This document shows, one piece after another, positions 1-64,000 of a stretch of 64,000 nt of DNA. The first letter of the stretch is position 1; every line of letters begins with the position of its first letter. The notes under the pieces were generated by a model. That model made no database searches. It saw only the letters and a program-made list of their open reading frames with translations, and was not told the DNA's origin. The position numbers and the translations under genes were made by a program. This DNA comes from Membranipora membranacea (taxonomy: Eukaryota; Bryozoa; Gymnolaemata; Cheilostomatida; Membraniporidae), in contig OU612074.1 in NCBI GenBank assembly GCA_914767715.1, positions 4,169,501 through 4,233,500 on the forward strand, written 5' to 3'.

Positions 1-2110
1 GAGTAACAAAATGAGAAATGCTAATAATTTTTGAATTTGAGATGGCTGTGTTATCGCTTTACGCTTTACATTTAACACTTTCTATGCCTTTTGTACTCTT
101 TAAAAAAACACGAATATGACCAGACTTTAATCTCCTTCAGTAGTATACTATAAGAGTCTATATCAGGGGCTTTTACTCGCCCAGAAGGGGAATTCCCTAC
201 AATTATTGATTTTAAAAGCCAAAGCCAATAAACTAATAGCCTAATACTGGCATAAACATTCACAGTATGTCAGCTGTCTAGAACACTTATATCATTCACA
301 TAAGGCTGTGGATATTTTACATTATAGGGGATTCCCCGCTGCTAACAAACAGTATTCATAACACAGAATGCACAATCTGAAAGCTTTATCATAGCAATCT
401 CAATCACCCTTCATCAACAAGTTATAACTAATAGTTAACTACAATACCTTATTTGCGTTGGATAAGCCAGTCATGAGACACGTTCATAGCAAGTTCATAC
501 CCCACTCACACTTGAGAACTGTTAGAGACACCAAAAGCTAAGGGAGGACTTCACTTAGGTATGTGTATTAGAAATTATACATTTCAAGATAGTGGTCTGC
601 ACTGAATATCCTTTTACAATGGACTGCCTTCTCTGTAGTTTATACAAGTCCAGTGGAAAGGCCTCTACAACCGGGGCATGCAACTGCTGGACTTGCTCAA
701 ACTAAAGAAGGCATGTGCTTTTAACAGCTGCGTTGCAATGATTATGTTTATTAGTAAATGATCATACTTAAATAAAAGATGTACAGAACAAGTGTTATCT
801 CTGAAACTAGGGGTTTTAGGAAAACTAAACTCAATACAATTGATAGAACAGGCTCACCTCAAATCACTGTTACAAATGTCTGACTTGCTCAAGCAAGATC
901 TTCTCAGTACCGAGCTATCAGTGGATTGTCCTCTCTACTAGCCGCCAGCCTTTTGGGTGACTCTACAAGTAATATAATTCTCATATGAGTAATCTAGCTG
1001 TCCTCACGAGTATAGGCTTCATGTTGCACAGAAAACAGTCATGAGTAGAGTCCCTTGCCCAATCTTGCCTACTTCTTTTTCTTTTGTTTTTTGGTTGTAG
1101 CGTCCTTCAAGTTTTTCATTGTTTTGATTGGATCCATAATATGTAATAATATATATGTATATATGTAGTTGGTACAAAGGGATAATATGATTCCTCAGTA
1201 TGAAATATGATAGTAGTCTGCATGCATGTTTGCCGCTACGTGGCTGACTGGTTTTTGGCTGAGTCATGTTGTTTAAACCTTTGTACACAACTACATGTAA
1301 AAATAGGAGTTGCCTTCCTTTTTATGTGTGGTGGGGCAACTCCAAAGTAATATATGATGGCTTTTAGAATTTGACTAATATTCAATATAGCACTAGTGTG
1401 AATTTCCCAATGTAGTTTGCAGTAGTACTCCATTTTGACATATCCCTGCTACTGTATGTAGGCTTCACGCTTGCAAACTTTGCTATGTTTACATGTTTTA
1501 TACATACTGCAGAAGAGAGTCTGCTGTAGACATTAAGTCACCCCAATAAGCTCAGCCAGAGGCTAGCCAAACTTTACTCATTAAGTGTAAATTAACTCTG
1601 TGTGGGCACAACTCTGAACATTTAATTCTGGTATTATTACTCTGTCTAACTAGATCTATGTTTTAATGTTAAAATCATTTTTTGGTCATACGACCTGAAC
1701 ATTCTTTTCTCTAATGCTAAAATAGGCTCGTACAATAATGAGGACGCTTGCATCCACTCCCCTGCATGCCACAAACTAAACATGGTCTGATAACAACGCA
1801 TTTAAGATAGTTCTATATCAGAAGCCGCAGCTGACAGAGAGAGATGGCAGGGATTTTATATAAATTCCATTGACACGGGGTAGTATGGATGGATTTATTA
1901 CAATCACTGACAACGAAGCAGTGAAATTGGCACTGGTAAAAGACAAAATATAGAAAAATCAGGTCTCTGTGGTAAAAGTTAAAAATGAATATTGTTTAGT
2001 GTGAGAATCAGATGTCATAAAAACCAGTCTAGGCCCCAAGCACCTCTGTACTTCATGGTGCGGTAACGAGTAGGCCTAATAGGGCATAATTTGAATACAC
2101 TTTACCATAC
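1..2110. repeat. Segmental repeat R1, copy a
   Basis: Non-coding segment nearly identical over its whole length to 49165-51260 and, apart from transposon insertions, to 22495-26030. The window starts inside it. It runs directly into R2 near 2110. Around 1502-1534 it carries a 'tacatactgcag' stretch followed by a degenerate match to the first 20-odd bases of the RING exon of gene A (6590 onward), so R1 seems to include a decayed 5' flank of a gene-A-like copy. ORFs here are short and not conserved between copies. No gene is called. Confidence 0.85.
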
Positions 2111-2111
2111 C

Positions 2112-4740
2112 ATAATGATAATCTATGAATTCTGTCAATTTATGAAGTTTTTTGTCTGAATTTATTCCTTGATGAAGCCGCCTAATCTATATTCAGGCTC
2201 ATTTCTGCCCTATAATACAGCAAACTTGAACTTTTTTCCAGGGGCACCAAACAAAATGTGGGGAAAACTTTTTAACAGGGAGGTAATGTCCCACAAAATG
2301 AGGTAAGCTCTGACTGAAGGGGTCAAATGCTATAACCTCAGGCCCTCTGCATGGTATTTTGATTTTGGGAGAAAGCATGCACTCAATAGTAATTTATTTT
2401 CAGTTAAATATTATTATATAACTGATATGGGTAATATTTCACACAATTCATACACAGACTATTGATGTTGTTGCTCCTATAAATAATGATGCAGAGATTA
2501 TGTCTATGGCTGAACTGGAATGCACAGTTGGTGTGTGACTGATGTATATTATACTGTATTCAATTATATTATTATAAAATAAAAACAATGATCCCCTGGA
2601 GTATCTAGTCCTATAGATGTACGCCAGAATAATTATAGTAATGAAGTAGCTCAGCCAACAGCATGGTAAACTGGTGGAGCAAACATAAAGACATACAAGG
2701 AACATTGACATTCTTCAGATACCTAACGATTTTGTGTCAACTCTGGTCACAGAGAATGAGACTTCCTGATCAGTGAAATTGTCCCCTTCGCACAATGATT
2801 ATCAACTGAACTTGATTGACAAAATGAGTCGACAAGATCTGCTACATCAAAGTATGTTCTGGTGATGCTGATGATAATCAACTCTTCAAGATATAAGCAT
2901 ATTATTGGTTTTGGGATTGCTTTCGTTTTTGGGAAATTAAAAAACAGCCAACTCAGTTTGGTCATCTCAGACATCCGGTTTGGTCAAATGGTTGTCCCAG
3001 TATGTACGACAACCAGGAGACGACCTTTCTATGCACAATCTCAGTTTCTGTGAGATCATACATGTTTTATCCAGTCATGAGGTCAACTATAATATTGTTC
3101 TTATGGTACTGCAAACAGGTAGGGAGTAGTAGATCGCTTAGTTAGATAGAGAGAGGTCCCTTAGCAACCAGGTGCAGGTGTTAGATTTTAATCTCATTGC
3201 AGTCCACTGTGGTTGTTGAGGCCCCTGGTGTGCTCCGACCTGCTTCAAAAAAGGAGCAATATGGTGAAGTAATTGCAGCCTCAGCATTGTTGAGGGGACC
3301 AATTTTATGCACACACTTCCTTATTAGAGTTATTAGTACCAGCATCCTTGGAGTTATCTGCTCAGATGATGAAGTGTGACAACTTCAACGCAACAACCTT
3401 ATTTTTGTGCTTTTGTCAGTTGGGAATTTTTGATTCTTGTTTTAAACATGCTGTTAATATACAAGTTCAACACAAAGCGCTTTTGACCCCCCTACGAAAA
3501 ATTAAGGGACATGATCAATCCTCCAATGAGAATAATGTGTAATCAGAACCTAGACCAGTGTGGGACGTGCAAAACATCAGTGCAATTTGCTAGTATCATA
3601 TACATTGCCACTCAGAAGAAGCATGCAAAAGTGCTGATAATAATGGCTACCTGGTGGCAACGAATTGATTCTTAGCAGATTGAAATAGACGGCAATTATA
3701 AAATACTGTTGTCTTTAAAAACAAACATTCTAATAATGGTATCACGTTGACAATGCAAACAGCTTCTTCTCTGAAAAAGTCGATGCTGGCATCGACCCAT
3801 GATTTGACTTCATTGATAGTGCAATGAACTCCCCTTCGTTGGATATTGCCCAGATGGCAGTTTATTTGTTATGTAGGTAGACTCTGACAAGTTGACCACC
3901 ACTGCTAGAGCTTTGATGGTGATGCAGCTATTGACGGTGGGTTCGGTTAGAGAGTGTCAGAGCAATACTCAGCTGTATTAGCTGTAAATGTTAAAAAATT
4001 TCATACCGTTTAATGTTGGTATATGACGATAGACTGAATAGTAGGCTGTTTGTAATCAATCTTTTACATGTATTGCAAATGCGCTGGCTTGATAGGTCCA
4101 CTATTTTTAGTTTGGTCATCATATGGAACTTGTGTTGGTGATGAACTAACTGTTCAGTGTTTCCCAAAGAACTTCAGTTCATGGCTAAGGATAATGTCAA
4201 GACATCTACATTCTGTGGAATGCTATATCATTGTATCAATGATGAGAAGATCTGTCAAGCTGAGGAGTCTCTGTTTAAGAAAAGGGATAGTTTTGATTTT
4301 ACTTGCGTTTAATAGACGGTTGTGCTGTTTAATGTTTCTATCCGTGTTGATCTATGTTTTGGAAAGATAACTCCAAATTCAGAATGTCATCGCATGTATA
4401 TTCTGAGATGTGCAGCGGAGTACATCTGAGAAATTGGGGTTCACCACACAGCCCTGTGGGCTACCTGTAGACATGATGATAAGAGCTGCCTGCTTTCCTG
4501 ATGAAATAACTTATTATTTAATCTAAGTACATATAGCTGATGATGTTTGGTAGTAGGTTGATCATTTTGTTCATGTGTACTACTTGAGATATCATGTTGT
4601 CATCGCTCTAGACCTAGAGAAAACATCCCTCCTGCCTGACCAATACATTGACCCTATAAAAGTAAGGTGTTCGCATGCTTGAGATTTAAGGCTTATATTA
4701 CATTTATTCAATCTCTTTATTTCATATAATCACCAACCTC
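2112..4740. repeat. Segmental repeat R2, copy a
   Basis: About 2.6 kb of non-coding DNA similar to 16657-19260 and 43231-44950. Each copy starts at the same 'atgataatctatgaa' boundary; in copies b and c this lies about 150-700 bp behind the stop codon of an eIF4G W2 exon. That suggests R2 is the ancestral 3' flank of the gene and has been duplicated with it. Short ORFs are broken at different places in different copies, so no protein is called. Confidence 0.8.
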
Positions 4741-4769
4741 AGTTAACCAAAGTTTAATGCTAGCTAAAG

Positions 4770-5225
4770 TTAAGTCACCCCCACTAGCTGAGCCAGAGGC
4801 TAGCTGACATTTACTCATCAAGGGTAAATAAAGCCTGCGTGTGGGTACAACTCTGAAAACCTAGTTCTAGTATTATTACCCTGTCTTATTAGATCTAAGT
4901 TTCGTTTTTGTTAAAATCCGTTTTTGGGCAGACGACCTGTGAAGTGAAAGGATAACTCCTATCTCTTGTGCTACATTAGGTTCGTACAAAATGTGTGAAC
5001 CTGCATACAATCCCTTGCTATACAATGTCACATCATCCAATATACATGGTCTGATAATATGCATTCAAGACAGCTCTAAATCAGCAGTCACAGCTGGCAG
5101 TGACAGATGGCAGGGACACCTGGTAGAAGGCCAAATATATTCTTGCAGAGTATAATTCACTCTAACCCAAACTTCTGCACCTACACATTCTGATTTAGGT
5201 CTAAAGACAGCATTATGGAAAAAGA
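4770..5225. repeat. Segmental repeat R3, copy a
   Basis: Linker segment found between R2 and R1. Related sequence lies at 19262-19720, 48840-49164 and, as a short piece, 45030-45070; the opening 'taagtcaccc...gagccagaggctagc' portion is also found inside R1 (about 1533-1660). No coding potential seen. Confidence 0.65.
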
Positions 5226-5450
5226 GCCGGTAACAAAATGAGCAGTGCTAATAATTTTTGAATTTCAGATGGCTGTGTAATCGCTTTACACTTTACACTT
5301 AACACTTAACAATTTCTGCCTTTTGTAATCTATAAAAAAAACTTGAATAAACCATAACCACTAACATTACCACATTATATATCACTTCTATAGTTGAATA
5401 TTATAAGAGTTTATATCAGGGGATTTTTCTCCCTCAGAAGGGGAATTCCC

Positions 5451-5630
5451 CACAATTATCGATTTTAATAGCCAAAGTCAATAAGGAGAGGTATACACCC
5501 GAGGGTGCTGGGGGCTGGAACAATCAACAATGAAAGCTCCCCCAGTGGGGCTCGAACCCCACTGGGGGAGCTTTCATTGTTGATTGTTGATTAAAATCAC
5601 AATTATCGATTTTAATAGCCAAAGTCAATA
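5451..5630. mobile_element. 114-bp insertion with 33-bp flanking duplication and a perfect palindrome
   Basis: The 33 bases at 5451-5483 are repeated exactly at 5598-5630. Paralogous R1 copies have the sequence once, so 5484-5597 is an insertion. Inside it, 5521-5550 and 5557-5586 are a perfect 30-bp inverted repeat around a 6-base spacer. The palindrome centre reads GGTTCGAGCCCC on the minus strand, a tRNA T-arm/box B, so the insert may derive from a tRNA-like SINE. Confidence 0.7.
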
Positions 5631-6071
5631 AACTAATAATCTAATACTGGCATAAACATTCACAGTATGTCAGCTGTCTATGACATGGATAACATCATAA
5701 GGCTGTAGATTTTTAACATTATAAGGGCATTCCCCATTGATAACAAACAATCTACATTACGCTGAACGCACAATCTGGAAGCTTTATCATTGATGTATCT
5801 GACATCCTTTATCAACAAGTTAGAAGTAATAGCTCACTACACGTTCATTACTTATGTGATAAAAGTCAGTCATAAGACACGTTTATAGCTCGATCGGTCA
5901 CACCTGAGAACTGTTAGAGACAACCCAAAGTTAAGGGAGTAAAAATTGCGAGAAAAAGGTTGCTGGTACATGTACTCTGCTAAAAAATAATGAAGTTGCC
6001 TTGCATGCAAAAATAATATTATTAAAAAGGAGTTAAAAAACTTTTATTATTAATATGAATGCATGTGTGTC

Positions 6072-6377
6072 TCAAAAAGCAGTCTTTGCCCCAGGCAGTG
6101 CGGTATTTAGGGTGTCTAAGCAGACCTGAGGGCATCGTTCGAGGTAGTTCTGGATAAAATGTTCGCCATCAGTGAACATCCGCATTACACAACTTTTTGA
6201 ATGAGTGTTAACTAGAGTGTCGAGATCATAATTAAGTTGTGATCCGAGCGAGGAAGCATCTTTAAATATTTTGCGCATGGCCTTCTCATCTCGTTGATAA
6301 ATGGCAGGATAGAGGACTGCCCTTTTCTGTAGTTCATGCAAGTCCAGTTGAAAGGCCTCTACAACCAGCGCAGGCAA
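6072..6377 (-). CDS. Unassigned coding-like ORF fragment
   Basis: Open reading frame of about 100 codons on the minus strand in the part of the R1 copy that does not match other R1 copies. The translation has a protein-like composition (for example DGEHFIQNYLERCPQV) but I do not recognise the family. Its 5' end overlaps sequence shared with R1, so any start codon is arbitrary. It could be the 3' end of a transposon gene or of a minus-strand host exon. Low confidence. Confidence 0.25.
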   Translation of the reverse strand: MPALVVEAFQLDLHELQKRAVLYPAIYQRDEKAMRKIFKDASSLGSQLNYDLDTLVNTHSKSCVMRMFTDGEHFIQNYLERCPQVCLDTLNTALPGAKTAF

Positions 6378-6609
6378 CTGCAGGACTTGATCAAATTACA
6401 GAAGGCCTGTGCTTTTAACAGTTGCGTTGCTATGGTTATGTTTATAAGTAAATGATCAACATCAAAAAAGAGATGGACAGAACTAGTGTGAATTGGAAGA
6501 TGTAGTATGCAGTAGTACTTTTTTTTTACATGTATGTAGGCTTCACGTTTGCAAACTCTGTTATGTTAACTGTTTTATACATACTGCAGGTGAGGAAACT
6601 GCAGTAGAC

Positions 6610-9600
6610 ATGGATTTACCTGCTGACTATGAATGTAACTACTGTTTTGATACGATCGAGGCTATGAAGGATCCCCGTAAGCTGCCCTGTGGTCATGTCT
6701 TCTGTTATCAATGTCTCAAAGATGACCCATGGGCTGGTTATATAATCGTCTGCCTCACATGCAGGTGAGCAGTGATAGACCATGGTTACTGTAACGCATC
6801 GCATCCTTAGCACTCGCTGGTTAAACAAGGCACAGGTAGATGTCATTGTCTTGGGCTGAGTAATAATATTGCTGCAGATTTGGTGCTAAGTTTTCCTCAG
6901 GCTGAAACCTGCAGAGACCAGTATCCAGAAGGCTTCACCAAGATTTAAACTACATCTTTCTAATCTGACCTGACCCAAACTTACCTACTCTCCACTTGAC
7001 TAATCCAAGTCAGTTATTTCTTTGGATGAGATTTTTTCATCCAGCAAATCAGAATTTTGAAGGAGAACTCTTTTTTGTATACTTCCCAGTTCATAAAAAG
7101 TCTCTAAGCTGGTAGTTGAAAGGTGAGGCGGATAATTGTTGGTGGTTCTTGGAAGATTTTGTTAACATTGCAGGTTATGATATTAATGTAGGAACCGGAT
7201 GAAGCATGAAATTAATTTTACATCTTGCTAAGTCTGTATTAACCGAACCGATATTTACATCGTATTTCCTTATTTCAGCTCATCTCATGAGAACCTTGAT
7301 TTAGGTTCATTACCTTTGTATCAACCCGTGCAGCAAAGAACCGAGGGCAATAGGGCAACAGAGGTTAAAGGTGAATGTCAGGAAGATGAAAAAATAGAAA
7401 CTCTGCCTTACTCAAAGTCTAGTTTTACAGACAATTATGTCAACTCCTGCGGGAACGGTGACACTATTTCCTGTGTCAAACAACAACAGGTAAGTGGCAG
7501 AGCTACAAACATGTTCTATGTAGTCATATAAATGCAGCATTCAGAAAAAAAACATAACGGTTATTATCCATGCTAATGGTTTGTTTTGTTCTATAGATTT
7601 CATGTGGGTTGCACAAGAAAGAAGGAGTTAGGATCCTTTCGAGAATCAGCAGCAGTAGTTTGGGACAGCGCCAGATTGTTAGAGTTATTCAACATCGAAT
7701 ACAGAAAGCAGAATTAAAAAATGTAAGTCCAACACTCACTGGTTTAGTTTTTATAATGATTATATCAGCATCTAGGAACAACTCCTCTGAATATGCCACT
7801 GCTGTTCAACAGGGTGCTGTGACAGTGGCTCAATAGATTGGGACCTCAGGAACAGCTTGGTGCTGGCTATGCTCTGACAATGAACATATAAGGTGAATGG
7901 AGCCTAACTTAAGCTGTTATAAGGTGTCCTGTGTAGGTTAAGTGTTTGGGTATAACTGGCAGTGTCTTTGGAGGAAAGCGTGTCACTTAAGTATAAGAGA
8001 AAAGTAGGACAATCTGGTGATACAACACTAAGAATAACTCCTATACTGTGAATTGTCAACGGAAGCATTTTGATAGAGTCCTGTCTGCACCTTTATAGTT
8101 TCAAACGATTGACTGAACTAATTGGTTGGCAAACTACTTGGTGGAAGATAAATTGGGAATCATACTTTGTATGGTCAAGTTAGAGCTCATTTTTTCCCGA
8201 CGAAGTGACTGAGTTTACTGTTGTTTGACTTTAATTGACAGAGAGCAGAGAACCCATGGAGACTCGGAGGTAATGAGCAGGAAAATGCTACAGAAGCAGA
8301 TAAAGCCCACAATTGTTTGATCAGAACTATGAGAGGCATGCTCAACAAAATCACAACACAAAAATTTAGGGTTATTCTCGAAAAGGTAGGGACGACAGTA
8401 CAATTGATGGAATTGCCTCCTTCCGGTGACACTTAAGTGCTCTTTTTGCCTTTTTAAAAATAATATCATTGCATAAGAGACAATCATTGAAGATGATACG
8501 AGAGAATTGAAATGAGAAAAACCGGCAAATCATTCTCAAAGTAGTGCTGCATTTAAAGAGTTGCCTGGTTTTTCTAAACTTGCAGAAGTTAAACAGAAAA
8601 ATTTCATACTTTCAATTATGTGTGAACAATCATTGGACCATATGGTCACAGTCTTTTCAATTTTTGATTTGTAGATATTAGAACTATCAGTAATCTCAGA
8701 GAAAGATCTGACAGGAATTATGAACCTTTTGTTTGAGAAGGCCATTGCAGAACCTTTATACAGTAGCACGTATGCATCTCTTAGTGAGAATCTAGCTAAG
8801 GTAACTGATTTAACAGGGTCATACTTTCTCTGTCATTGCATGCCTATGGGGTGGTGATTTTGTCACTCCTAGAAAGAGGATAAAACATTTTTAATGTAAA
8901 CATTGTTCATTTTCACCAAATCAATAAAGAAGGTGCCATTGAATTCAATTATTCATTCAACCAAGGACTGAATGTTAAACTTACAGTGAATATTCTGTAG
9001 ACCTGACCAGCTCAATGCCACCCCAGTGAATATGCTGTTGGCATTAAAGTTGTATTTCAAGCCACTAGGCAGAATAGCTGTTAGCCACCATAAATTGATG
9101 CTTTAATTTAAATTCCAATTGAATTAAATTCCAACTACACTGACACACAAGATCTGCCCAAAGTGAGTTGGAGACAGAGTGGTTGTTTTGTTAAGATATG
9201 TTTCCAAATAGGTATAGCAGTTGTGAATCAAATACAATTACAACCCAGAAGATGTGAATGTGAATGATAACGAAAAAAGTTTTTGTCGCATATTAATAAA
9301 AAGAACGATCCAAGTTTCAAGATGGCTCTTTTCTCTGCTGTAGGAGTTCAAGGTACCACTAGCTGATGACCCAAATACATTTGTGAGCTTCCGAAAGCTG
9401 CTACTCATACGATGTCAAAAAGAGTTTGAGAGATCACATGATGATGATGTAGAGATGGTAACAAAAAAAGCATACCTGCGCAAGGCCACGGGTGATGAGA
9501 AGGCTCAACTTCAAGTGGAGTTTGATAAATTTGAGACAGCTGCTCGACGCAGGAAGCTAGGAAATATCAGGTATATTGAACAACTATAATAGAGGAGAGC

Positions 9601-12600
9601 TTAAGGTGTCATTGAATTGATATGCGTTACTCTTTGTTTGTATTCTGTTAGAAAAGCTCTCATATAGGTTTAGATTAGAATATATACAATTGAGAGGGTT
9701 TCTTGCTTTACAAATCGCTGTTGAAAAGTCGGACTTTCCCTAACCTAGAATTAAAAATTAGGTGATTGAACATCTTGTGGTCGAAACACACTTAGGGTTT
9801 TAACTTCAGAGGTTTGCACACAACACAAAAAATTGAGAAATGTTTATTTATAGATTCATAGGAGAATTGTTCAAGCTTCAAATGTTGGTGCACAAGATTA
9901 TGCATGACTGTGTGGTGAGCTTACTGAAGGGAGCTGATGAAGAAAGTCTTGAGTGCGTCTGTTTACTATTCACCACAATAGGAAAGGAGCTAGATACTGA
10001 TAAGGCAAAGGTACAAATCATTCTTTGACCAAAAAGCCTAGATTTGCTGCCATAGACAGAACACAAGGCGAATCTGTTATGAGCCCAGGGCTGTATTCAT
10101 GGGTTTTGAAGTGGTAGAGCCAGGCGGGCTGGGGCTGGAGGGGCGCTGTAGGGCCTTCCCGCCAAGGGGGTATGGTGGGCCTTCCCCAGGAAAATTTCAA
10201 AGATCGAAGGCATTCCCGCCCTTTTTGAGGAGAAAATTGACAAAGAAGTTTGCTGCTGGAACCTTAGTGTAACAGGACGTACATCATCTTATCCCTCCTG
10301 TGATCGATACGTGGAATTGAGAAAAGCCAGCAACCGTATTATGGAATGTGGAAACAGGACAAACAGTAAAAAATATGAAGAATGTTAACTGCTTACAGTT
10401 AAGAAGATGAATAACAATCATTCAAATGTGTGATATTGATAAATTTATGTCTAAATTCTTTTTTTTTGACCACCAAAGAAAAGGCTTGTGGGACGAGATC
10501 CCATGAAGTTGGCAATATTGAATCGCAACCAATCAAGAACATGTTATATTTAGTGGCTGACTGTTCAAGTTTGGCCCAAGGTGTGTTTTAGGGCTGGCCT
10601 TGGCGCCGAAGGATAGCTCACATGTTTCAGTTTTAGATGATGCTCTAAACCTCATAACAAGCTGAAATTTGCAAATTTTTCATTATAAACAGCTTTATCG
10701 GTGCTAACACTTCATAATCCCTACATATAACTCAGGGGCCGCCTGAGCACCTGTTATTGCTAAATGAAATAGAGCCAATGTGTATTTTTAACACTTATGA
10801 CAACTTTTTTGGTTTTTTTTTTATTGAGCCCTTTAACTGTATGTGCAAAGCCAGTGAGTCAATATGGCGCAATGCTTACTGAGTTTATTAGACATATAAA
10901 TGAAGTGTCAATGATTACTCACATATTTTTGAGCAATTTAGGACAGATTTTTAAATGATAACTGTAGGGTAACAATGTAAGAAAAGTCATATAGATTTGC
11001 ACCAGTATTATCCTTCCAACCTTAATCTCACCTTACACAAAATACAATAAATATTTTGGAACTTCACCTTTGCAGCCGAGAACAAACCAGTATTTTACTG
11101 AGATGAAGAAGATAGCCAATGGTCAGTCTCATAAGAAGGTCTCATCTAGGATTCGGTTCGCTCTGCAAGACACTATTGAGCTTAGAGATGTGAGTCACCC
11201 ATTTGCACACAAACAGCCTAGAAAAGTTTGAGAGAATCAGGGGCATGATGATGTTACTGCCATGCCCCTGACAATAATTTTCACCTCAGCTCTCTGTCAT
11301 ACAAGATCTATCCTGATTATGATATCTTTGCTTTAAAATAACTGGAAGCCTCGTAGAGAAAGCAGTGGACCCAAAACAATAAAGGAGGTTCGAGAGGAGG
11401 CTGCACTTAAGGCTCATGAGATGCAGATGATGGTAAATTCGGCTCAGATACCAAACCTGCCATATATAAGAGTGTATATATTATGTGTAAACCATGTATT
11501 ACTGTGTTTTAAGTATTATCATATGATAAATATGTATTTATATTTGAGGTTGAAGCTATATTCTGTGTGATATATGAAAGACCATGCAGTAAGATAACAC
11601 CACAAGTCACTTCTGTCCGACTAATTACTGATATAACTACCATGGGGCTATATTTACTTTTCCTTTTAGAATAACTGGAAGCCTCGCAGAGAAAGCAGTG
11701 GACCCAAAACAGCAAAGGACATTCGAGCAGAGGCTGCACTTGAGGCTCATGAGAGGCAGATGATGGTAAATTCAGCTCAGATACCAAACCGAGGCAGCCA
11801 GAGCCGAAACTTTGCACAGCCCAGGTACGATAGATGTGTAAAATGGTTTGACTTCATCCTATGAGGGTTAATTAAATGAGATTGCCGCTCACAACTCCTC
11901 TATCAATAGCTAGAGCTGTTTTGCTAGGTAAAAGACCTTTTACCCGTTACATTACCATGAGGATACATTATAATATCACTCTAACTATACTAGGCTCACA
12001 AGTCCCAGAACATTATATCAAAGTTGCTACTTTCCCATTACTTTAATGGCACTTTTAAAAGACATTAATTTCTTAAAGTTATTTATGTGAACCAGACAAA
12101 CTGCTCATAGGACGTAACCATCACTTTGGCTAAGAGCAGTATTTATAGTCAAACAAGTTCCACAGGGCTTATTTTCCAACATGGCTGAATGATCTAAGCA
12201 GGGACATCATACTTCCCCCTCTTTTATGGAAGGCATCCATGAGTTGTCACTGTCTTGCAAGAACGACATATTTTGTCATCTTTTTAATTTGTTTTGGTTG
12301 CCATGGTTAACTGAAGGTAAATATCTATACCTCTACAAGGAAATACTGTAAGCGGGTACTTTTTTACTCCTCATTTTTCAATCAATTTGTCCAAATGTTT
12401 CACCACTGGTGTTTTTTACATCAGTACTGTACAGGGGGAAATTTCACCATTGGAACATTCACATGATGCAATGAATGGTTCAAGCTGTTGCAAGACCCCG
12501 CTTCCGGATCACTGTGGTACGGTGCAATTAGATGAAGCGTTTAGTGTTAGAACTTTCCTGATGTTCAGCATATAGAGGTCAACATTGGGCAATTATATTC

Positions 12601-15600
12601 TAGTCGATTGGTCTAGGTAACTGTTCAGCCAAAATCAGTGGACAGAAGGATTTTTATCATGGATGCTGAAAATTTAGACATATCAGTTTTTTCCCTCATT
12701 TACATGTGTCAGATTGTCTAGATCAGAGCATTAGTTTGGAGTGGATAAAAATAAATAAGAACTCCTATTAATAACTATCCATCTACTTTGCAGACAACAA
12801 AGAGGTGAACAGGATGGCTGGAATCAGGTAGGAGGTAGTATAAAGCCTCAGCGTATAGACCCCAGTAAGCTCAAGCTCAGCAAACCTACATTTGGGGCAA
12901 GTGACACAGCTCAACTCGGACCAGGTGCTGGATTCGGCAGTGGATCCAGCTGGGGTAAGGGATACGGCTCTGGAAATAATACACCACCTCAACAAGAGGA
13001 ACGTCCTAACACTCCAACCAAAAGATTCTCCGTAAGTGCCTACAAAATGAGATAAATAGTTACTGTTAAGTTTTAACTGTTCTCTGTTGTTTTGCAGGAG
13101 ATCTTTTATTACTATAATATGCTTATTTGTCAATAGCTTATTCTTGATGATTTTGGTGCACAGGATTATCATGAGTGGATAGTAATTTACTAGAATCACC
13201 GATTGTGAGCAGTTCACATATTTAGGAGTGAGCACCTCCTCCCTTACCAAATATTCCTGTTTCACTTGAGAACTTGAGAGCATAGATTGCGCTAATTGAA
13301 CCATATGACACTGCGTGATTTGAATAAACTTAATCTTGTGAATTAAACATCTGCTGAACCAGGAAATAAATGTCAGTTCCAAATATATTATACCAGACTT
13401 TCTTCCAATCGTTGGCAGACAAAGTCAAAACCTAAAAAAAAAGTATGCTCCAATAGTGTGCCAGTTTTATAAAATAAGATAGAACTATAACCTGTCAACG
13501 CAGATCCACAGGAACCCAATATGTTCACTTACGCTTTGATCGTCTTACTGACAGGCACTTAGCATGGGTGGTGATCAAGATGCAGGTAGAGATGAGAGAT
13601 CTAGGTCAGGTCAGAGGTTACCTACTGGTAGGAATAGTATGGGCCGAGGTAGAGGTGGTCGAATGAATATCCCTCAACGTGGCTTCATGGAGAAAGACAG
13701 GTAAGTTGTCTGCTTTTGATTTCTCATGGAGGTGACAAAAGCTTAGGTAACTAGCTTTAAATCGTAATTAATGGATATGGGGTAGAACCTTATTTTACCA
13801 AACCATTATCATGACTCACAGACGCACACATGTTCTAAGTTCGGAGGCTCACTGAGGGCATTCTATCAGTTTTCGCCATCAAGAAATACCATCTTATCCC
13901 TGCTCTATGTTTACTTCAGATCTAGTGCACTAGCAGCTGCACGACAGTTCTTTAGACCAGGAACTGGCGGTCCTGGTTCTCGTGGTGCTTCCAGAGAGAG
14001 TAGCGTTGAGGGGCGCGGTATGAGGACACCGACCCCTACCAGACAGGGTGCCTCAGCTGGAGGATCTAGGGCTGCCGCCGCTGCTCCTGCTGTCAAACAG
14101 CTGAGTAGAAATGAATGGAGTCAGAAGATGGGTTCTATAATAGATGAGTTCATCCACACCAAAGACCTGAAAGTGAGTCTGCACAACATATGTTTTCACC
14201 TCACCTTGCATTCTTATGTAATCTTGTCACATGAAAGTTAAAGTCAAATAGCTGCCAAGTAGTCTGTAATGGCATACACAAATAATGAGGAGATCAAACA
14301 CTTATTTTCGTCTGGATACGGCCATGTGTAGCTTATTTAGTGGCACAGAATTTAAAGATGAAAGTGCATGATATAATGTTGTGTTCAAACTTTTGATTGA
14401 GGTAGATGTTGGGTATCAATCAGTAAACACCCCCAAACTACCATGATCGTAACCTAAATCACATATCATTGATTGACTCACTTAATCGAGACATCATTTA
14501 TTTCTGTTTGCAGGAAGCCATTGAATGTGTTAAGGAGATAGGAACACAGTCTAGTGCTGAATTACTAACAGAAAGTTCGATCAACCATATATTAGAACGA
14601 TCTTCTCAGGCCCGCAAAGCCTCTGGACAATTACTAGCCGAACTTATCAAAGTAAACTTATTGACATTGGATGATCACATGAAGGGACTAAGCTCTGTGA
14701 TAGAATTTGCTGATGATCTGGCCATAGATATACCAAATGTGTGGCAATATTTCGGAGAGCTCATATCACCTACATTTATGCACGCCAAGGTTCCGCTAGC
14801 AAAGCTGGTGGATGTCTGTAGCCCTCTATTATCTGTAGGAAAATCTGCTAAACTGGCTGCTGCAATACTAGAGGAATCTTGTCATAGCATAGTAAGTTAT
14901 CTTCTTATTTGCATGTATTTTCAACATCAATTGTTGTATATTTTTCTCACTTCAGTGAAAAGTTAGATATTTGAGTTTTGCTTCCCTGCTTATCACTTAC
15001 AGTCACTGATGGTCAAAGATAACCGATAGCCCTTAATGACTCAGAAGAAGTTTTAAACCTTAGATTGTTTCTGATTTACGTGAACATCTTCACAGATAAC
15101 CTCGTCATGCATATCATTACCTACTTTGGTCCACTTGGCTCTGAGGCAAACTTACTAAGGCTATCCTTATTTTGTAGGGTCATATAGAAGTAGGTAAACA
15201 ATGGAATGAGAGCAATATAAAGTGGTCTTTGTTCCTCTCAGCTGAAGAAGATGAGAAGGAATTCATCAAGTCTAATGTTAGTACAATGTCATCACACTGT
15301 TTAATTTTCCTTTTAAATCACCTCAAAGTTCTTGGAAACAGGTAGAAATGAAGTGGGCTGCAACTTCTCATTTTGTTGTTGAAAGATGTAAGAGTGTATG
15401 TCACTATCTACAAAATAATTTATTAGTATTTATCACCATTGTGATGTGTTCACCACAATGATGCCCTTTCCTACTTGTTATCTACAGAAGCTAGAGTACA
15501 CATTATCAGACACAGTAGCCCAGAGTACATCATCAGCCTCACGCAAAACTTCCTCAGAGGATATCAGTGAAACTCTGAATAAGTTATTACTGAAAGACTC

Positions 15601-16500
15601 AGCTCCCAACGAAACTGTCTTTGACTGGATCGACGGTAACCTGACGACTGAGAAACGAAAAGAACCTAACTTCATAAGATCTCTAACTCGAACAGTCGCC
15701 AAAGCTTGCATCAGTGAGTTTTCAACCAACTTGGCTTCAGAAGTAAAAATTCCTGGCATAGATAGTGTGTGAATCATGATCTGTCAAATATTGTTTAGAT
15801 TTGGTTCACTAAACAGCCACTAAGTGCCCTGAATAATAGCTATCAAGAGATTCATTATGATTTTACTTAACATAATATAATGTTGATGATGTACTCCATT
15901 CCTCCTCTTAGTTTTACTGTTCCGATGTTACATCATTGTACAATGTGTGCTTTTTAATTAACAGAGTCTAGTGAGTTGCAAGAGGAGACTTTGAAGACTC
16001 GTGCTCCCATGTTATTGAAGTATTACGACGGTAAACCCGATACAGAGTTGGCTGCTCTCAATGCACTAGAGGAATTAATGGATGAGCTTCAACACCCTTC
16101 CAGTAAGTCCATAAATAAGTGGAAAAGGTTGCAAAATAACCTCAGATTTGGCAAAGCTTGTCATTTTTATCAGAATTATACAGGACACAAGAATCACTGG
16201 AACAGTAATGGATGAGTTTAGCTGTCATGTATCTGGCATCAAAATAGCTTGTACATCCGCAATTCTAACTGAAGCTGCAGAGATAGTCTCACTTGCCCAC
16301 ACCGCATAATGGCATTTCATCAAACTTTCACATATATTTTCGTTTTTATTTTAGAATTGCTCAGCGATATCTGTTATGCTCTCTCTGAAGAAGAGCTGAT
16401 ATCAGACGATTCATTCTTTGACTGGGAGAAAAATAGTAAAAATGGAAAAGCTATCAAATCTGTATCACAATTCTTCCAATGGTTACGGACTTCTGATTAA
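6610..16500 (+). CDS. EIF4G: Gene A: RING finger fused to eIF4G core (MIF4G-MA3-W2)
   Basis: Proposed 17-exon gene, 3039 coding bases, about 1012 aa. Exons: 6610-6764, 7279-7489, 7597-7722, 8242-8385, 8675-8800, 9344-9570, 9854-10010, 11076-11189, 11670-11824, 12794-13031, 13555-13700, 13920-14172, 14514-14891, 15178-15276, 15488-15713, 15965-16102, 16355-16500. All junctions are GT-AG and keep phase. Residues about 9-51 form a RING-HC (CNYC ... CGHVFCYQC ... CLTC). From about 165 'AENPWR' leads into MIF4G (to about 420; [32 protein letters not shown]), then eIF4G linker motifs (SSWGKG, TPTKRFSAL), MA3 (about 660-810) and W2 (about 843-1012; [18 protein letters not shown]). MIF4G normally binds eIF4A/eIF3, and W2 is a C-terminal HEAT domain that binds Mnk in vertebrate eIF4G. 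The usual N-terminal PABP/eIF4E-binding part is replaced by RING. The exon at 6590 is open upstream of ATG 6610, so more 5' exons are possible. A separate RING gene ending before 7597 is the alternative. Confidence 0.85.
10011..11075 (+). other. Long intron of gene A between MIF4G exons
   Basis: About 1.07 kb between the exon ending ...DTDKAK and the one beginning PRTNQYF. It has a GC-richer patch at 10080-10260 unlike its surroundings, possibly an inserted element, but no terminal repeats, ORF or RNA gene that I can support. Confidence 0.5.
11336..11458 (+). pseudogene. Decayed tandem duplicate of a gene A exon
   Basis: These bases translate as [20 protein letters not shown]..., a close copy of the true exon at 11670-11824 ([21 protein letters not shown]...). 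The similarity stops after 'ataccaaac'. The genuine exon has acceptor 'ccttttag' while the copy reads 'gctttaaa', so the acceptor AG is lost; the last part of the exon and its donor are missing too. It is therefore read as a non-functional pseudo-exon inside the intron 11190-11669. Confidence 0.8.
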
Positions 16501-16656
16501 ACGGCTTAGTTTTTTCAAATTACTGCATGAAATACTGAGTTAGGAGTACAATACTAAATTTTCTTCAGAATACTGATGTTTGTATTCCCCAAAGTTTCCC
16601 ATATATGGAGGACAACTCCCAACTCTTACTGAGCGACTTGGAATTGTGCTATAAGA

Positions 16657-19260
16657 TGATAATCTATGAAATCTGTCAATTTAGTCAAGTTTTTTTGTCT
16701 GAATTTATTCCTTGATGTAGCCTCCTAATCTATATTCAGGCTCATTTCTGCCCTACAATACAGCAAACTTGAACTTTTTTCCAGGGGCACCAAACAAAAT
16801 GTGGGGAAAACTTCTTTACTGGGAAGTAATGTCCCACAAAATGAGGTAAGCTTCGACTAAATGGGTCAAATGCTTCCCCTCAGGCCCTCTGCATGGTATT
16901 TTGATTTTGGGAGAAAGCTAGCCTGTCTTGACGAGCTTTGTTCACCGAACAAAGCTTGTCAAGACAGGCTAGGAGAAAGCATGCACTCAATAGTATTATA
17001 TAACTGATATGGATAGTATTTCACACAATTCAAACATGGACTATTGATGTTGTTGCTCCTATAAATAATGATGCAGAGATTTTGTCTATGGCTGAACTGT
17101 AATGAACAGTTTGTGTGTGACTGATATCTATTATACTGTATTCAATTATATTACTATAAAATAAAAACATTGATCCCCTGGAGTATCTAGTTGTGTTAAT
17201 GTACTAAATAATAAATAAATAATAAAGTAATCCATGAGCTCAGCCGGCAGCATTGTTAAACTGGTGGAACAAACATAAGCCCAACCCTATACATTGAAGC
17301 CATATGAGCCACTCTGACATCATTAAAGAAAAACAACAATTTTGAGTCAACTCGGTTCACAAAACATAAGACTTTTTAAATCAGTAAATTGTCCCTTCTG
17401 CGCAACATTTATCGAGTAAACTTGCATGACTTGCAAGAATGTTGTCGATTTTCGGATGCCTTACAGCTTTTATTTTTGGTGCATTGAAGTACAGTGTATA
17501 ATATTAGTCACGTCACCTGAGATTGCTCAACAACCAATAGATGTACAATCCAAGTTTCAGGGAGATCATACATTACATAACCCTGTGATGAGGTTAACTA
17601 AAATAATGATCTTACTCAGTACTGCAAACAGGAAAGGAGTGGTAGGTGGCTCAACTGGACATGTTGAAGGTCCCTTAGCGAGCAGGTCCTGGATTTGAAT
17701 GGTGCACTGTGTTGTTGAGATCCCCCATGGCGTGCTACAAACAAAGAAGCACTTTGATGCTGCAATATTTCACAAGCTCTGCACACTTTTCTTGGTACAA
17801 CAGGGAGTTTAGAACAAGCTCCTTTGCTAAAAGTGAACGTACCATCGGAGTTATCTGCTCAGCTAATGAAGTCTGACAACTTCAACTCAACAACTTTATT
17901 ATTACGCTTTTTGTGAGTTGAGAGTTTGGGTTATTATATTCAAAACTTCTTGTTGGCATAGATCAACACAAAGCTCTTTTGGCCCTCTCCTCCCAATAAT
18001 TACAGAGTAAGTAGTTCGATCCTTAATCACAACAATGTGAAAACACAGCCTAAACCTAGCCTGGGCTAACCTAAAACAGTGTGGTCAAATCGGTCATCTG
18101 TAACATCCAGTGTATTCTTATAGTATCATATCATATACCACCAACAGAAGGAATGAAAAATTGCTGATATGAATGGCTGTGAATGATAAAACACTGCTGT
18201 CTTTTAACACAAAAATATTATCGATGGATACAAACCTCTACGAAAACGTACTATACAAATTTCTTTTACTACAGACAGCTTCTGCTCTGAATGAGTCCAT
18301 GATGGCGTTGATTAATGATTTTAGTTATTGATAGTGCCCTGATGGCAGTTTATCAAATGTGAGTGTACACACGTTGGCCACCACTCCTAGTGCTTTGCTG
18401 GTGATACAACTATTGATGGTGTCCTTGGGGTTTGGTGAGAGAGCGTCAGAGAGCTTCTCAGCTGACTTAACTATTGGTTGAAATTTCTCTGCCATATGAT
18501 TCTAGATGATATTGGACTTAGGCTTTTGATCAAGCGTTACAATCAAGGTATTGCAAATAAGCTGGCATGGCTCAGCAGCTTTTCACTCAGTTGGCTCATG
18601 GAATGGCGTTGGTGGTGAGCTGTTCCGTGTTTGCAGAAAATTTCAGTTTTTGGATCAGGAATTTGTTAAGCTACTTATGCTATGTCAAAAACTCAATCAC
18701 TGTATCATTGATAAGAAGATCTGTTATGCTTTGAGAGTCTATACTGTTCAGAAAAGTGTGGGTTTTGGTTTTACTTGTGTTTAATCAAGGTTTAATAGAA
18801 GGTTGCGCTTTTCATGTTTCTTAGTGTCGATTTATTTTTTGGATAGATAACTCCGAATTGAGAATGTCGTTGCACGTATACTCTGTGATGCGGAGTTTAT
18901 CTGTGAATATTGAGAACAGTTTGGGGTTCAGCACGCAGTCCTGTGGGCAACCTGTACATATGATGATAACAGCTGCCTTCTTTCCTGATGATATAACTTA
19001 TTATTGGCTCCAGGTACATATAGCTGATGATGTTTGGTTGCAGGTTGGTTGGTCTGTAGCTGTTTTTTTATTAGTACTGTCGTGTTGGGGTTGTGTGACA
19101 ATGTCAAGAGAAAATAACCCTCCAGCTCTACCCTTATATTTACCCTAGAGGAGTAAAGTGTCCACACGGAAGGAAAAGTTCGCTCGCCATTTTGAGCACC
19201 CTTGAGATGGCTGAATTTAAGGCTAAAATTCACTCTTTACTTTATAAAGACTCCAACTAG
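16657..19260. repeat. Segmental repeat R2, copy b
   Basis: Follows the stop codon of gene A by about 150 bp and matches 2112-4740 and 43231-44950. It carries a small palindromic insertion at 16919-16971. AATAAA-like motifs near 17205-17225 could serve gene A polyadenylation but cannot be verified. No conserved ORF. Confidence 0.8.
16919..16971. mobile_element. 53-bp palindromic insertion with 9-bp target duplication
   Basis: Arms 16919-16943 and 16947-16971 are inverted repeats with one mismatch (termini TAGCCTGTCTTG) and a 3-base loop. 'ggagaaagc' flanks both sides. The paralogous positions in R2-a (about 2365-2380) and R2-c (about 43485-43495) have this 9-mer once and no palindrome, giving two empty sites. 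Nine-base duplications are typical of Mutator-like elements; that class is only a suggestion. Confidence 0.8.
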
Positions 19261-25621: not shown

Positions 25622-26030
25622 CATACAGCCTGGAGATTCCTTTCTCTAATGCTAAAATAGGTTTGTACAATAATGAGGACGCTTGCATCCACTCCCTGCA
25701 TGCCACAAACAAAACATGGTCTGATAATAACGCATATAAGATAGTTCTATATCAGCAGCCGCAGCTGACAGAGAGAGATGGCAGGGATTTGATATAAATT
25801 TCATTGACACTGGGTAGTATGGATGGATTTATTACAATCACTGACAACGAAGCAGCGAAATTGGCACTGGTAAAAGAAAAAATATAGAAAAATCAGGTCT
25901 CTGTGGTAAAAGTTAAAAATGAATATTGTTTAGTGTGAGAATCAGATGTCATAAAGACCAGTCTCGGCCCCAAACACCTCTGTACTTCATGGTGCGGTAA
26001 CGAGTAGGCCTACCAGGGCATAATTTGAAT

Positions 26031-41100: not shown

Positions 41101-41323
41101 TTTAGGAAACCAAACAGATGCTTTTGAAGATCAGCCATATATGGTGGGGATGGGCAAGATCTCAATTCAATCAACTCTTAACGAACCTTCTTATATCAAA
41201 CAAGACACTGGGGTAAAAATAAAATCATGCTTCAACTTCATCAAACCCACCAGAGAGCCGGAGATAAACAATAGGATGAATACAAAGAAGGCAGGTGCAA
41301 CGGTACGCAAAAAACACGTTTAA
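38175..41323 (+). CDS. Gene B, part 2: RING plus B-box-like zinc fingers and coiled-coil
   Basis: Exons 38175-38310, 38637-38768, 39076-39163, 40052-40172, 40726-40819, 41106-41302, all phase-consistent. ATG 38190 (A at -3) could start an independent TRIM-like protein; the exon is also open from its acceptor in frame with the exon ending at 36870. RING-HC: CPIC ... CQHLICDNC ... CPTC. The next zinc-binding segment is C-x4-C ... FRCSDCKKFICFKCSKHGF ... H, like a B-box, followed by a helical region rich in E, K and L. RING/B-box/coiled-coil is the core of TRIM E3 ligases. The last exon reads through to TAA at 41321, but splicing at 41302 (gtacgc) or at a GC donor after 41290 joins it in phase 0 to the W2 exon at 41509. 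In that form ATG 38190 to 42532 encodes 420 aa. Confidence 0.75.
39340..39982. mobile_element. 640-bp foldback element with tRNA-like arms
   Basis: Lies in the intron between RING-gene exons 39163 and 40052. Long imperfect inverted repeats: 39340-39520 against 39800-39982 ('gaggctgctcttttgtat' pairs with 'acaaaagagcagcctc'). Nearer the centre, a minus-strand tRNA-like stretch (about 39604-39660) faces a plus-strand one (about 39685-39735; 'tagctcagtgttagcg' ... 'gggttcgaggcc'). It has no ORF and seems to be two inverted tRNA-derived units or a MITE carrying them. Termini not exactly resolved. Confidence 0.6.
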
Positions 41324-41508: not shown

Positions 41509-42532
41509 AAACTAGAGTACACATTATCAGACACAGTAGCCCAGAGTACATCATCAGCCTCACCTCAAACTTCCTCCGAGGATATCAGTGAAACCCTGAA
41601 TAAGTTATTACTGATAGACTCAGCTCCCAACGAGACTGTCTTTGACTGGATCGACGGTAACCTGACAGCTGAAAAACGAAAAGAACCCAACTTCATAAGA
41701 TCTCTAACTCAAACAGTCGCCAAAGCTTGCATCAGTGAGTTTTCAGCCTACTTGGCAACTGAAGCCAAAATTTCCTGGCATATATCGTGTTTGAATTATG
41801 ATTTGTCAATTATTGTTTAGATTTGATTCACTAAACAGCTGCTAACCACCCTGAGAAACAGCTATCAAGAGATTTATTGACATTTTACTGACCATGACGT
41901 TGATTCTGTACTCAATTCCCTCTCTTAGTGTTACTTTTTCCACGGTCACATCATTGTACATTGTGCGCTTTTGTTTGCAGAGTCTAGCGAGTTGCAAGAG
42001 GAGACTTTTAGGGATCGTGCTCCCATGTTATTGAAGTATTATGACGGTAAACCCAATACAGAGTTGGCTGCTCTCAATGCACTAGAGGAATTAATGGATG
42101 AGCTGCAACACCCTTCCAGTAAGTCGATAAATATGTCAAGCGTGATAGAAAAGGCTGCAAATACCCCCATTTGTCTTATTTCTTCAGAGTTGGCAAAGCA
42201 TGTTATTTTTATCAGAACTATGCAGGACACAAGAATCACTTTAGTTGTCATTGATGTGTTTAGCTGTGATGTATCTGGCATCCAAATAGCATACCTATCG
42301 CAATTCTAACTGAAGCTGCAGAGATAGTCTCACCGTCTCACTCTCACTTATCAAACTGTCACATATATTTTTCCGTTTTATTTTAGAATTGCTCAGCGAT
42401 ATCTGTTATGCTCTCTCTGAAGAAGAGTTGATATCAGACGATTCATTCTTCGACTGGGAGCAAAATAGTAAAAATGGAATAGCTATCAAATCTGTATCAC
42501 AATTCTTCCAATGGTTACGGACTTATGATTAA
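41509..42532 (+). CDS. EIF4G: Gene B, part 3: second eIF4G W2 domain
   Basis: Exons 41509-41734, 41981-42118, 42387-42532, with stop TAA at 42530-42532. The three exons, their introns and about 130 bp of 3' flank are near-identical to the last three exons of gene A (15488-16500); the few amino-acid changes leave the W2 core intact ([43 protein letters not shown]). No MIF4G or MA3 exon precedes it; the nearest coding exon upstream is the last exon of the RING/B-box gene, whose phase fits. W2 is the C-terminal HEAT domain of eIF4G. It could instead be a 3'-only duplicate that is never translated, but all splice sites and the frame are preserved. Confidence 0.75.
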
Positions 42533-62357: not shown

Positions 62358-63902
62358 ATACCGGAGCAGATGATGTTGATTATCCGCCAGTTAAAGAAGT
62401 CACCAGCAAGATCTCACCTAAACCTGCCCATGAAGTAGCTGACAATGTTAAAAAGGACATCGGAGAGAAGGAAAAACCAGTCCATGACAAGCTTGTAGAG
62501 CCAACTGCAGAAACTAGAGGAATACCCACCAATCATCAACGGGGACACAATATACACGGTATGAGCGGAACTTCGCCTCAAACACAACCGATGCACTTCT
62601 CCCCTCAACACCCACAGTACATGATAGCTAATATGCCGGGACAAGCTATGGTATGTATTATTGGAATTTATCATCAATTTCTATGTCAAAGTGTGTGAGT
62701 TTAATTGCCTGACAAGCTTAACCAAGATCTGAATTCAGATATTTTGTTATTCAATTTTAATTGTAGAAAAAGCTAGAGTAAGATATATTTTTGCAATTAC
62801 AGAGGCTCATTTCAAGCATGGTCTATATATAATTTTGAAAAATAGGTTTCATCATAATCATGAACGGGGACACCGTATACAAAGTATGACCGGGTTGGTA
62901 TCCGGTTAGAACCCCTAATCTGAGATATATCTGTTGTTGTAATACAGTATGTAATTCTTATAAAGCACTGTTAGTCCCTCAATATTCTAAATAATTGTTG
63001 TTATTCGAGGAAACACTCCCCCAATTGCTTGCTGTCCTGGTTTTCTCATCTTGGTAACTGTAAATTAGTTTGTTATGCTTTTTACTGATATGTATATGTG
63101 TACAACTGCAATTGAGCTGTGGTAAATATATATGCCATATCCAATACCCCATACTGCCTAACCATCTATATTGTTTCCTCCCACTGGTTATTTTTGACAG
63201 GCTGCTTTACAAAAGAGGGAGCGCAAACCACTGACTATAATTAACCCAGACACACACGAGACTGTGAATATAGAAGAACTCACTAAACCTCGAAGGGATT
63301 CAGATGCTAGCGTGCCTGATTATTATTCATATACAGAAGGTGAGGATGTGTAAGGGAAGCCAATCTCTGATATTTAGTAAACAGTTCTTACCGTGATATT
63401 TTAATGATTGAATTTCATTGCTCCACACACCCTGATGCATCCATCACCCAGGCTCTGCCTTATACTATTTCCAAATTTGAAGCTATAATAGTCAAGAGAC
63501 TGCCAATTTCAATATCATTATGGTGCATAACTGACTGCATAAAGCTGATGTTGCCATTTTCTCTGAAGTTGATTTAAGTTTGTATTCGTCTTGCACTCCT
63601 TGTAATCAGTGTATGGATCTGATATTTTCTTGATGTAGATCTAACACGACCTTTGAACCCAGCAGGAAAGAAGGTATACGATCGAGACTTCTTGATGAGC
63701 CTTAGGGCAGCTGGTCCATCTAAAGAGAAACCTGTAGGCCTGTCAACACCCACAGCACAACAACCACAGTCTAGTCAGCAATCTTCCCCCACCACCACTG
63801 CATTACCGGTAGACAAACTGGCAGCTAATGTGTCTATGAAAGGCTCCAAGAGTATGGCTGACTTCACAAATAGCACAACCGCCAATTATTCATACAAAGA
63901 GG
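62358..63902 (+). CDS. EIF4G: Block D: eIF4G N-terminal region with eIF4E-binding motif (partial)
   Basis: Exons 62358-62650, 63201-63339 and 63639-63902 in one consistent frame, continuing beyond the window. The first has an acidic, Lys/Pro-rich start and then the segment shared with gene B (RGIPTNHQRGHNIHG ... NMPGQAM). The second carries QKRERKPLTIINPDTHE. The third has KKVYDRDFLMSLR, a canonical eIF4E-binding motif (YxxxxL plus hydrophobic) at 63677-63697, as in animal eIF4G. This is the ordinary order of an eIF4G N-terminus, so D may be the conventional eIF4G, with MIF4G downstream of the window. It lacks the YHPQQQ and long Gln-rich exons present in gene B. The first exon needs an upstream exon ending in phase 1, not found. 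Confidence 0.8.
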
Positions 63903-64000
63903 GTAAGTTTGTGTAAGGGCAGCCAATCTCTGCAATTCAGTTTGGTGTTCGTATAGTCAGATACCAATGATTGAATCTCATTGCTCCACACACCCTCTTT
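63340..64000. repeat. Tandem duplication of exon end plus intron in block D
   Basis: The exon ending at 63339 codes ...YYSYTEG and the next ends at 63902 with ...NYSYKEG. The DNA after each donor is similar for about 95 bp (63340-63432 against 63903-64000: 'agccaatctctg', 'attgctccacacaccct'). This shows a tandem duplication of exon 3' end and intron. Confidence 0.7.

What the first reader, a model, noticed from the sequence alone, without database searches (positions are those of the whole stretch)
6590..16500. A RING finger is spliced in frame onto the core of eIF4G
Gene A reads through 17 exons without a frame error, from a RING-HC motif to intact MIF4G, MA3 and W2, replacing the PABP/eIF4E-binding N-terminus. 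Known eIF4G and DAP5/eIF4G2 families have no RING that I know of. If real, it is a ubiquitin ligase built on the eIF4A/eIF3 scaffold. Seen: motifs, splice phases, total coding length divisible by three. Inferred: that one transcript joins exons 6610-6764 and 7279-7489 to the eIF4G exons.
Basis: partly seen in the sequence, partly recalled or inferred. Interest (0 to 1): 0.92.

Follow-up and report, generated by a model that had tools for sequence, protein, structure and literature searches.

The report
RING finger joined to eIF4G core
In a tandem cluster of genes for the translation factor eIF4G, one copy appears to have swapped its cap-binding front end for a RING finger, a module typical of ubiquitin ligases, and a few annotated freshwater-mussel proteins show the same combination.

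Summary
Seventeen exons (6610-16500) splice at GT-AG sites into a 1012-aa open frame: RING (8/8 zinc ligands), linker, then eIF4G1/3-type MIF4G, MA3, W2. The window is a tandem eIF4G cluster. Copy A carries the RING, right after pieces of a 5' flank that in copies B and C precedes conventional N-terminal blocks. No in-frame ATG lies between the RING exon and codon 194, inside MIF4G. Exon 2 bridges in phase; 0 of 1000 shuffles did so at its splice scores.

The architecture is not unique: three annotated unionid mussel proteins (Potamilus, Sinanodonta) carry RING+MIF4G. Placing the window gene inside Unionida is rejected (AU p 0.0007), suggesting separate fusions; a long branch and gene conversion are caveats.

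No transcript was available, the organism is unidentified (genome search did not complete), and the RING departs at three positions usual in active ligases. Most likely: an eIF4G paralogue without eIF4E/PABP sites that brings a RING to eIF4A/eIF3-type complexes. Ligase activity is inferred.

The parts
5230..6611 (+). 5' flank of copy A: discontinuous pieces homologous to the 5' flank of copies 0, B and C; the match to copies 0 and C runs to 6611, at the RING exon's ATG (to 6585 for B)
   Evidence: blastn self-comparison, pieces 77-86% to copy 0, 70-86% to B, 76-86% to C; alignment
6610..6764 (+). exon 1: start codon and complete C3HC4 RING finger
   Evidence: Pfam RING models, 8/8 zinc ligands, donor score 6.9
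7279..7489 (+). exon 2: linker, phase 2 in, phase 0 out
   Evidence: splice sites and phase, shuffle test; no Pfam match
7597..7722 (+). exon 3: eIF4G region just before MIF4G; no ATG
   Evidence: BLASTP to conventional eIF4Gs P0005, P0013, P0020, P0033 begins at aa 142-153; Met list
8242..8385 (+). exon 4: start of MIF4G
8675..8800 (+). exon 5: MIF4G
9344..9570 (+). exon 6: MIF4G
9854..10010 (+). exon 7: MIF4G
11076..11189 (+). exon 8: MIF4G
11670..11824 (+). exon 9: last residues of MIF4G and linker
12794..13031 (+). exon 10: linker
13555..13700 (+). exon 11: linker, Arg/Gly-rich
13920..14172 (+). exon 12: linker and start of MA3
14514..14891 (+). exon 13: MA3
15178..15276 (+). exon 14
15488..15713 (+). 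exon 15: region before the Pfam W2 match
   Evidence: 94% identical to copy B
15965..16102 (+). exon 16: start of W2
   Evidence: 94% identical to copy B
16355..16500 (+). exon 17: end of W2 and stop codon
   Evidence: 97% identical to copy B
41509..42532 (+). copy B: C-terminal exons matching exons 15-17 of copy A; tblastn with gene A found no MIF4G or MA3 for this copy
   Evidence: dN/dS 0.26 against copy A
63623..63916 (+). open frame with a conventional eIF4E-binding motif (YDRDFLM), near the window's end
   Evidence: PF21140 E 4e-04 but 20.8 bits, below its cut-off of 27; tblastn by eIF4Gs P0005, P0013, P0020, P0033

Best explanation
Gene A is a paralogue in a tandem eIF4G cluster whose eIF4E/PABP-binding N-terminus has been replaced by a RING finger plus linker, spliced to the eIF4G exon just before MIF4G. 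Shown by sequence: the open spliced frame, the domains, the array, and no trace of the tested conventional N-terminal blocks at this copy. Inferred: recombination in the array placed a RING-bearing stretch behind a copy of the eIF4G 5' flank, giving it a promoter. The protein keeps the eIF4A/eIF3-type scaffold, cannot be recruited through eIF4E or PABP by the usual motifs, and carries the RING to initiation complexes. There it either ubiquitylates complex members or clients, or, if the RING cannot engage an E2, acts as a scaffold that competes with eIF4G.
For: Open 17-exon model; MIF4G, MA3, W2 and one RING model above cut-off; eIF4G1/3-type core, MIF4G 49-53% identical to five eIF4G-type proteins compared. 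The RING exon holds the only in-frame ATGs before codon 194; the upstream open frames of exons 2 and 3 have none. Flank homology to copies 0 and C runs up to the RING ATG. No significant match of seven N-terminal blocks to 4500-11000. Bridging exon 0 of 1000 shuffles at its own scores. Constraint on the C-terminal exons since duplication: dN/dS 0.26 from 13 synonymous and 13 nonsynonymous differences; exons 94-97% against introns and 3' flank 75-90%. The same architecture is annotated in two unionid mussels of different subfamilies, joined at a similar point before MIF4G; one Sinanodonta RING protein groups with the Potamilus one (100/99, 17-row tree).
Against: No transcript or peptide. Codon usage of exons 1-3 is not like the core. 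dN/dS covers only the C-terminal exons, was not tested for significance and may reflect constraint on copy B. The RING departs from three usual residues. A region search of aa 1-254 found nothing at E 10 or less among 936 candidates. The other Sinanodonta RING protein groups with that species' conventional eIF4G (80/84), and the 27-row tree leaves the unionid rows unresolved apart from the two cores of P0001. Non-AUG starts in exon 2 or 3 cannot be excluded.
Confidence: 0.55

Rival explanations
1. The RING exon belongs to a separate small gene or relic, and the eIF4G core of copy A is transcribed without it, for example with a non-AUG start like that recalled for DAP5, or from an unseen upstream exon.
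For: Codon usage of exons 1-3 is weak. Read without splicing, the RING frame stops right after residue 52. The core alone would be DAP5-like in layout (recalled).
Against: Exons 2 and 3 have no ATG and the next one is inside MIF4G. Exon 2 links RING and core in phase with strong sites. The eIF4G-type 5' flank abuts the RING exon.
Confidence: 0.2
2. The join is real but the RING is inactive as a ligase; the protein works as an eIF4E-independent or competing scaffold, with the RING serving for dimerisation or other binding.
For: Y11, L49 and S52 stand where active RINGs usually have I, P and R (sequence, S52; usual residues recalled).
Against: All eight zinc ligands are intact. RNF146 as aligned has A instead of P and is a ligase (recalled), so single departures are tolerated. 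The mussel counterparts have I, P and R.
Confidence: 0.3
3. Copy A is a decaying or misassembled product of the tandem array with no function.
For: The array holds broken copies: copy 0 is 5' flank joined to 3' flank, copy B shows no MIF4G or MA3, and exon 9 has a second copy at 11337 whose acceptor position reads AA.
Against: 17 exons open over 3039 nt; dN/dS 0.26. Copy A's 5' flank pieces differ by about 14-30% from the other copies, so a misjoin through near-identical repeats is unlikely.
Confidence: 0.12

Closest known systems
Unionid mussel RING-eIF4G proteins (P0001 Potamilus streckersoni CHS0354_017146; P0121 and P0122 Sinanodonta woodiana ACJMK2_007788 and _007790)
   Same: N-terminal C3HC4 RING, short linker, MIF4G and W2; MA3 above cut-off in P0001 and P0122, partial and below cut-off in P0121.
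   Different: Their cores lie inside unionid eIF4Gs; adding gene A to Unionida is rejected (AU p 0.0007). Their RING has 11 rather than 14 residues between ligands 2 and 3 and keeps I, P and R.
eIF4G1/eIF4G3
   Same: MIF4G, MA3, W2 in order; match to eIF4G1 from just before MIF4G to the end.
   Different: No PF21140 eIF4E-binding match in gene A and a RING instead.
DAP5/eIF4G2
   Same: eIF4G core without the cap-binding-protein site (start of abstract of PMC9977666 seen in the listing; loss of PABP site recalled).
   Different: Core is closer to eIF4G1/3 when like constructs are compared; DAP5 has no RING (recalled).
TRIMCyp fusions
   Same: Ligase-type N-terminus joined to a host protein, independently more than once (PMC6677749, passages read).
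   Different: No retroposed domain seen here; no B-box match in aa 52-164; coiled coil not tested. A closer analogue is Potamilus P0123, with B-box, MA3 and W2 above cut-off, a RING pattern below Pfam cut-off, and a TRIM28 match over aa 6-220.

Membership tests
eIF4G (eIF4G1/3 type) | MIF4G, MA3 and W2 in order | tested here: met
   match to eIF4G1 over aa 162-1011
eIF4G (eIF4G1/3 type) | eIF4E-binding motif and PABP-binding N-terminus | tested here: not met
   No PF21140 match in gene A at E 0.001; seven N-terminal blocks of other copies, one with the eIF4E motif, give no significant match at 4500-11000. PABP binding has no separate test.
DAP5/eIF4G2 | Core closest to DAP5 | tested here: not met
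   MIF4G constructs: 249 and 245 bits (eIF4GII, eIF4G1) against 138 (eIF4G2); C-terminal constructs: 203 (eIF4G) against 31 (eIF4G2)
RING E3 ligase | Eight zinc ligands in RING spacing | tested here: met
RING E3 ligase | E2-contact residues and linchpin | tested here: inconclusive
   Y11, L49, S52 depart from the usual I, P, R (usual residues recalled)
RING E3 ligase | Ubiquitin transfer | not testable with these tools
   needs a biochemical assay
TRIM | B-box after RING | tested here: not met
   no Pfam match in aa 52-164; a B-box-like CxxH start at exon 3 is by eye only
Unionid RING-eIF4Gs | Core groups with unionid eIF4Gs | tested here: not met
   gene A with the five unionid rows: AU p 0.0007; with the three RING rows: p 0.0012, but those three are not one clade by themselves in the free tree. 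Groups were named after the tree was seen; gene A is a long branch.

The most novel reading that the evidence does not exclude
Animals have repeatedly built eIF4G-baited ubiquitin ligases: RING or TRIM front ends captured inside tandem eIF4G arrays, at a similar point before MIF4G, in at least two lineages. Losing eIF4E/PABP contacts would bias them to eIF4E-independent (stress or viral IRES) initiation complexes, so they could serve as surveillance or antiviral ligases that use eIF4G as bait, in the manner of TRIMCyp.
Probability: 0.15. Interest if true: 0.92.

Novelty: new variant of a known kind. Interest (0 to 1): 0.7.

Why it matters
eIF4G is the central scaffold of cap-dependent translation. 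Replacing its cap-binding front with a RING would link the initiation complex directly to ubiquitin signalling in one polypeptide. That the combination is annotated in mussels and appears, apparently separately, here would make it a testable case of recurrent domain capture, and tandem eIF4G arrays a place to look for more.

Tried and rejected
B-box remnant in exon 3 ([12 protein letters not shown]): no Pfam match at E 10 (HMMER's filters drop most weak matches), and the same stretch aligns with the region before MIF4G in the mussel proteins; dropped. Structure of the RING exon: two AlphaFold jobs, mean pLDDT 55.7 and 55.2, uninformative; no fold search was made. Region search of gene A aa 1-254: 936 candidates, none at E 10 or less. 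Single origin with the mussel fusions: the AU tests speak against it, but the three mussel RING rows are not one clade themselves, gene A is a long branch, and gene conversion is possible, so it is disfavoured, not excluded. Structured RNA and tRNA: no hit by Rfam at gathering scores or by ARAGORN. Organism: not identified.

Literature: five searches aimed at such a fusion (20 of 32 papers listed, 20 of 41, 20 of 78, 8 of 14, 1 of 1) listed no title or abstract start that describes a RING-eIF4G fusion. Only the listings were seen; the unlisted papers were not. The library holds open-licence papers only.

The annotation of Sinanodonta used Potamilus proteins as homology evidence as well as RNA-seq (PMC12048480, passages seen), so the two mussel gene sets are not fully independent.

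Full report
What is there. The 1012-aa product has a RING (zinc ligands aa 9-51), MIF4G 192-422, MA3 669-770 and W2 946-1012. The core matches human eIF4G1 from aa 162 to 1011 (E 3.3e-159). Compared construct by construct, MIF4G scores 249 and 245 bits to eIF4GII and eIF4G1 against 138 to eIF4G2/DAP5, and the C-terminal part 203 against 31. In five eIF4G-type proteins compared (one of them a mussel RING protein), MIF4G is 49-53% identical to gene A, MA3 41-50% and W2 40-42%.

The RING. Four Pfam RING models pass their cut-offs on the translation of 6610-6765, which includes one base past the donor; in the spliced protein only zf-RING_UBOX passes. Eight zinc ligands are present and line up with the mussel RINGs. 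Y11, L49 and S52 stand where active RINGs usually have I, P and R (usual residues recalled), so activity cannot be assumed. AlphaFold models of the exon were too poor to use.

The join. Exon 1 ends in phase 2 and exon 3 begins in phase 0, so exon 2 is needed. In dinucleotide shuffles of the gap, a bridging exon with scores as good as exon 2 arose in 0 of 1000, with 5 bits and 150 nt or more in 6 of 1000, and with 4 bits and 60 nt in 95 of 1000. The splice matrices came from the 13 introns between exons 4 and 17 of the same gene. Codon usage does not help: exons 1-3 score about zero or below, lower than the core on which the measure was trained, and exon 3 scores higher in a wrong frame. The only in-frame ATGs before codon 194 are in the RING exon, and codon 194 is inside MIF4G. 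A full MIF4G therefore needs the RING exon's start, an unseen exon, or a non-AUG start.

The setting. The window is a tandem array of eIF4G copies. Copy 0 (1-4600) is a 5' flank joined directly to a 3' flank. Copy A (about 4770-19050) is the gene studied. Copy B has N-terminal blocks shared with copy C and the C-terminal exons (41509-42532), but tblastn with gene A found no MIF4G or MA3 there. Further N-terminal blocks follow, and a frame at 63623-63916 has an eIF4E-binding motif (PF21140, E 4e-04, below its cut-off). That these blocks are eIF4G N-terminal exons is my reading of their position, their B-C conservation and this motif. The 5' flank of the other copies recurs in discontinuous pieces before gene A; the match to copies 0 and C runs to 6611, at the RING exon's ATG, and that to copy B to 6585. 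Blast of seven N-terminal blocks found nothing significant at 4500-11000. Copies A and B share the last three exons with dN/dS 0.26 (13 synonymous, 13 nonsynonymous differences, no significance test) and higher identity in exons (94-97%) than in introns and 3' flank (75-90%), so at least one of them has probably been under constraint.

Relatives. The best of 120 listed homologues (2965 at E 0.001 or less; 7990 scored) was a Potamilus protein with RING, MIF4G, MA3 and W2; it was the only one of the 120 with a RING in the Pfam column. Part of its lead may come from its two MIF4G copies. A search with its first 190 residues returned 7 proteins among 124 candidates: itself, two Sinanodonta RING-MIF4G proteins, two conventional eIF4Gs, a Potamilus protein (P0123) with B-box, MA3 and W2 but no MIF4G, and a weak moth eIF4G. 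P0123's RING is below Pfam's cut-off but fits the RING pattern, and its first 220 residues match TRIM28. Of 124 proteins held, 4 match a RING pattern. The species belong to different subfamilies, Ambleminae and Unioninae. In the 17-row tree one Sinanodonta RING protein (P0122) groups with the Potamilus one (100/99), which suggests a fusion older than their split, while the other (P0121) groups with the conventional Sinanodonta eIF4G (80/84); the 27-row tree does not resolve this. The Sinanodonta annotation used Potamilus proteins, so independence is partial.

One origin or two. Adding gene A to the five unionid rows is rejected (p 0.0007). Holding it with the three mussel RING rows is rejected too (p 0.0012), but that test is weaker evidence because those three are not one clade on their own. 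The groups were named after the first tree had been seen. The RINGs align over only about 30 residues at 39-43% and differ in spacing. Two origins is the simpler reading. Gene A's branch is long, and gene conversion in arrays could have overwritten mussel cores, so one old origin is not excluded.

How it may work. Shown: architecture and array. Inferred: recombination put a RING behind an eIF4G promoter region; the protein binds eIF4A and eIF3 through the retained core but not eIF4E or PABP by the usual motifs; the RING modifies the complex or its clients, or is silent and the protein competes with eIF4G. An antiviral bait reading, by analogy with TRIMCyp (PMC6677749, passages seen), is speculative.

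Limits. There is no expression evidence.

Noticed in passing
1-4600: 5' flank (1-2110, 97% identical to 49164-51253) joined at 2110/2112 to 3' flank sequence, with the eIF4G body missing: a copy that looks deleted by recombination.
   Followed up: partly
11337-11432: Second copy of part of exon 9 with an open frame and a GT donor, but its acceptor position reads AA instead of AG; probably a dead exon duplicate.
   Followed up: partly
26000-42532: Copy B has N-terminal blocks and C-terminal exons with intact splice sites but no MIF4G or MA3 by tblastn with gene A; if spliced it would be an eIF4G lacking its core.
   Followed up: partly
46150-48217: Two overlapping open frames of a transposase-like gene, in different frames (hAT-like by eye; Pfam gave no match at E 0.01).
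   Followed up: partly
24001-25621: Element bounded by roughly 140-nt inverted repeats (86%) inserted in the 5' flank of copy B, with another inverted repeat inside.
   Followed up: no
29419-30275: 60-nt tandem repeat array followed by an array of 7-nt units; a frame through the 60-nt repeats is open for 194 codons.
   Followed up: no
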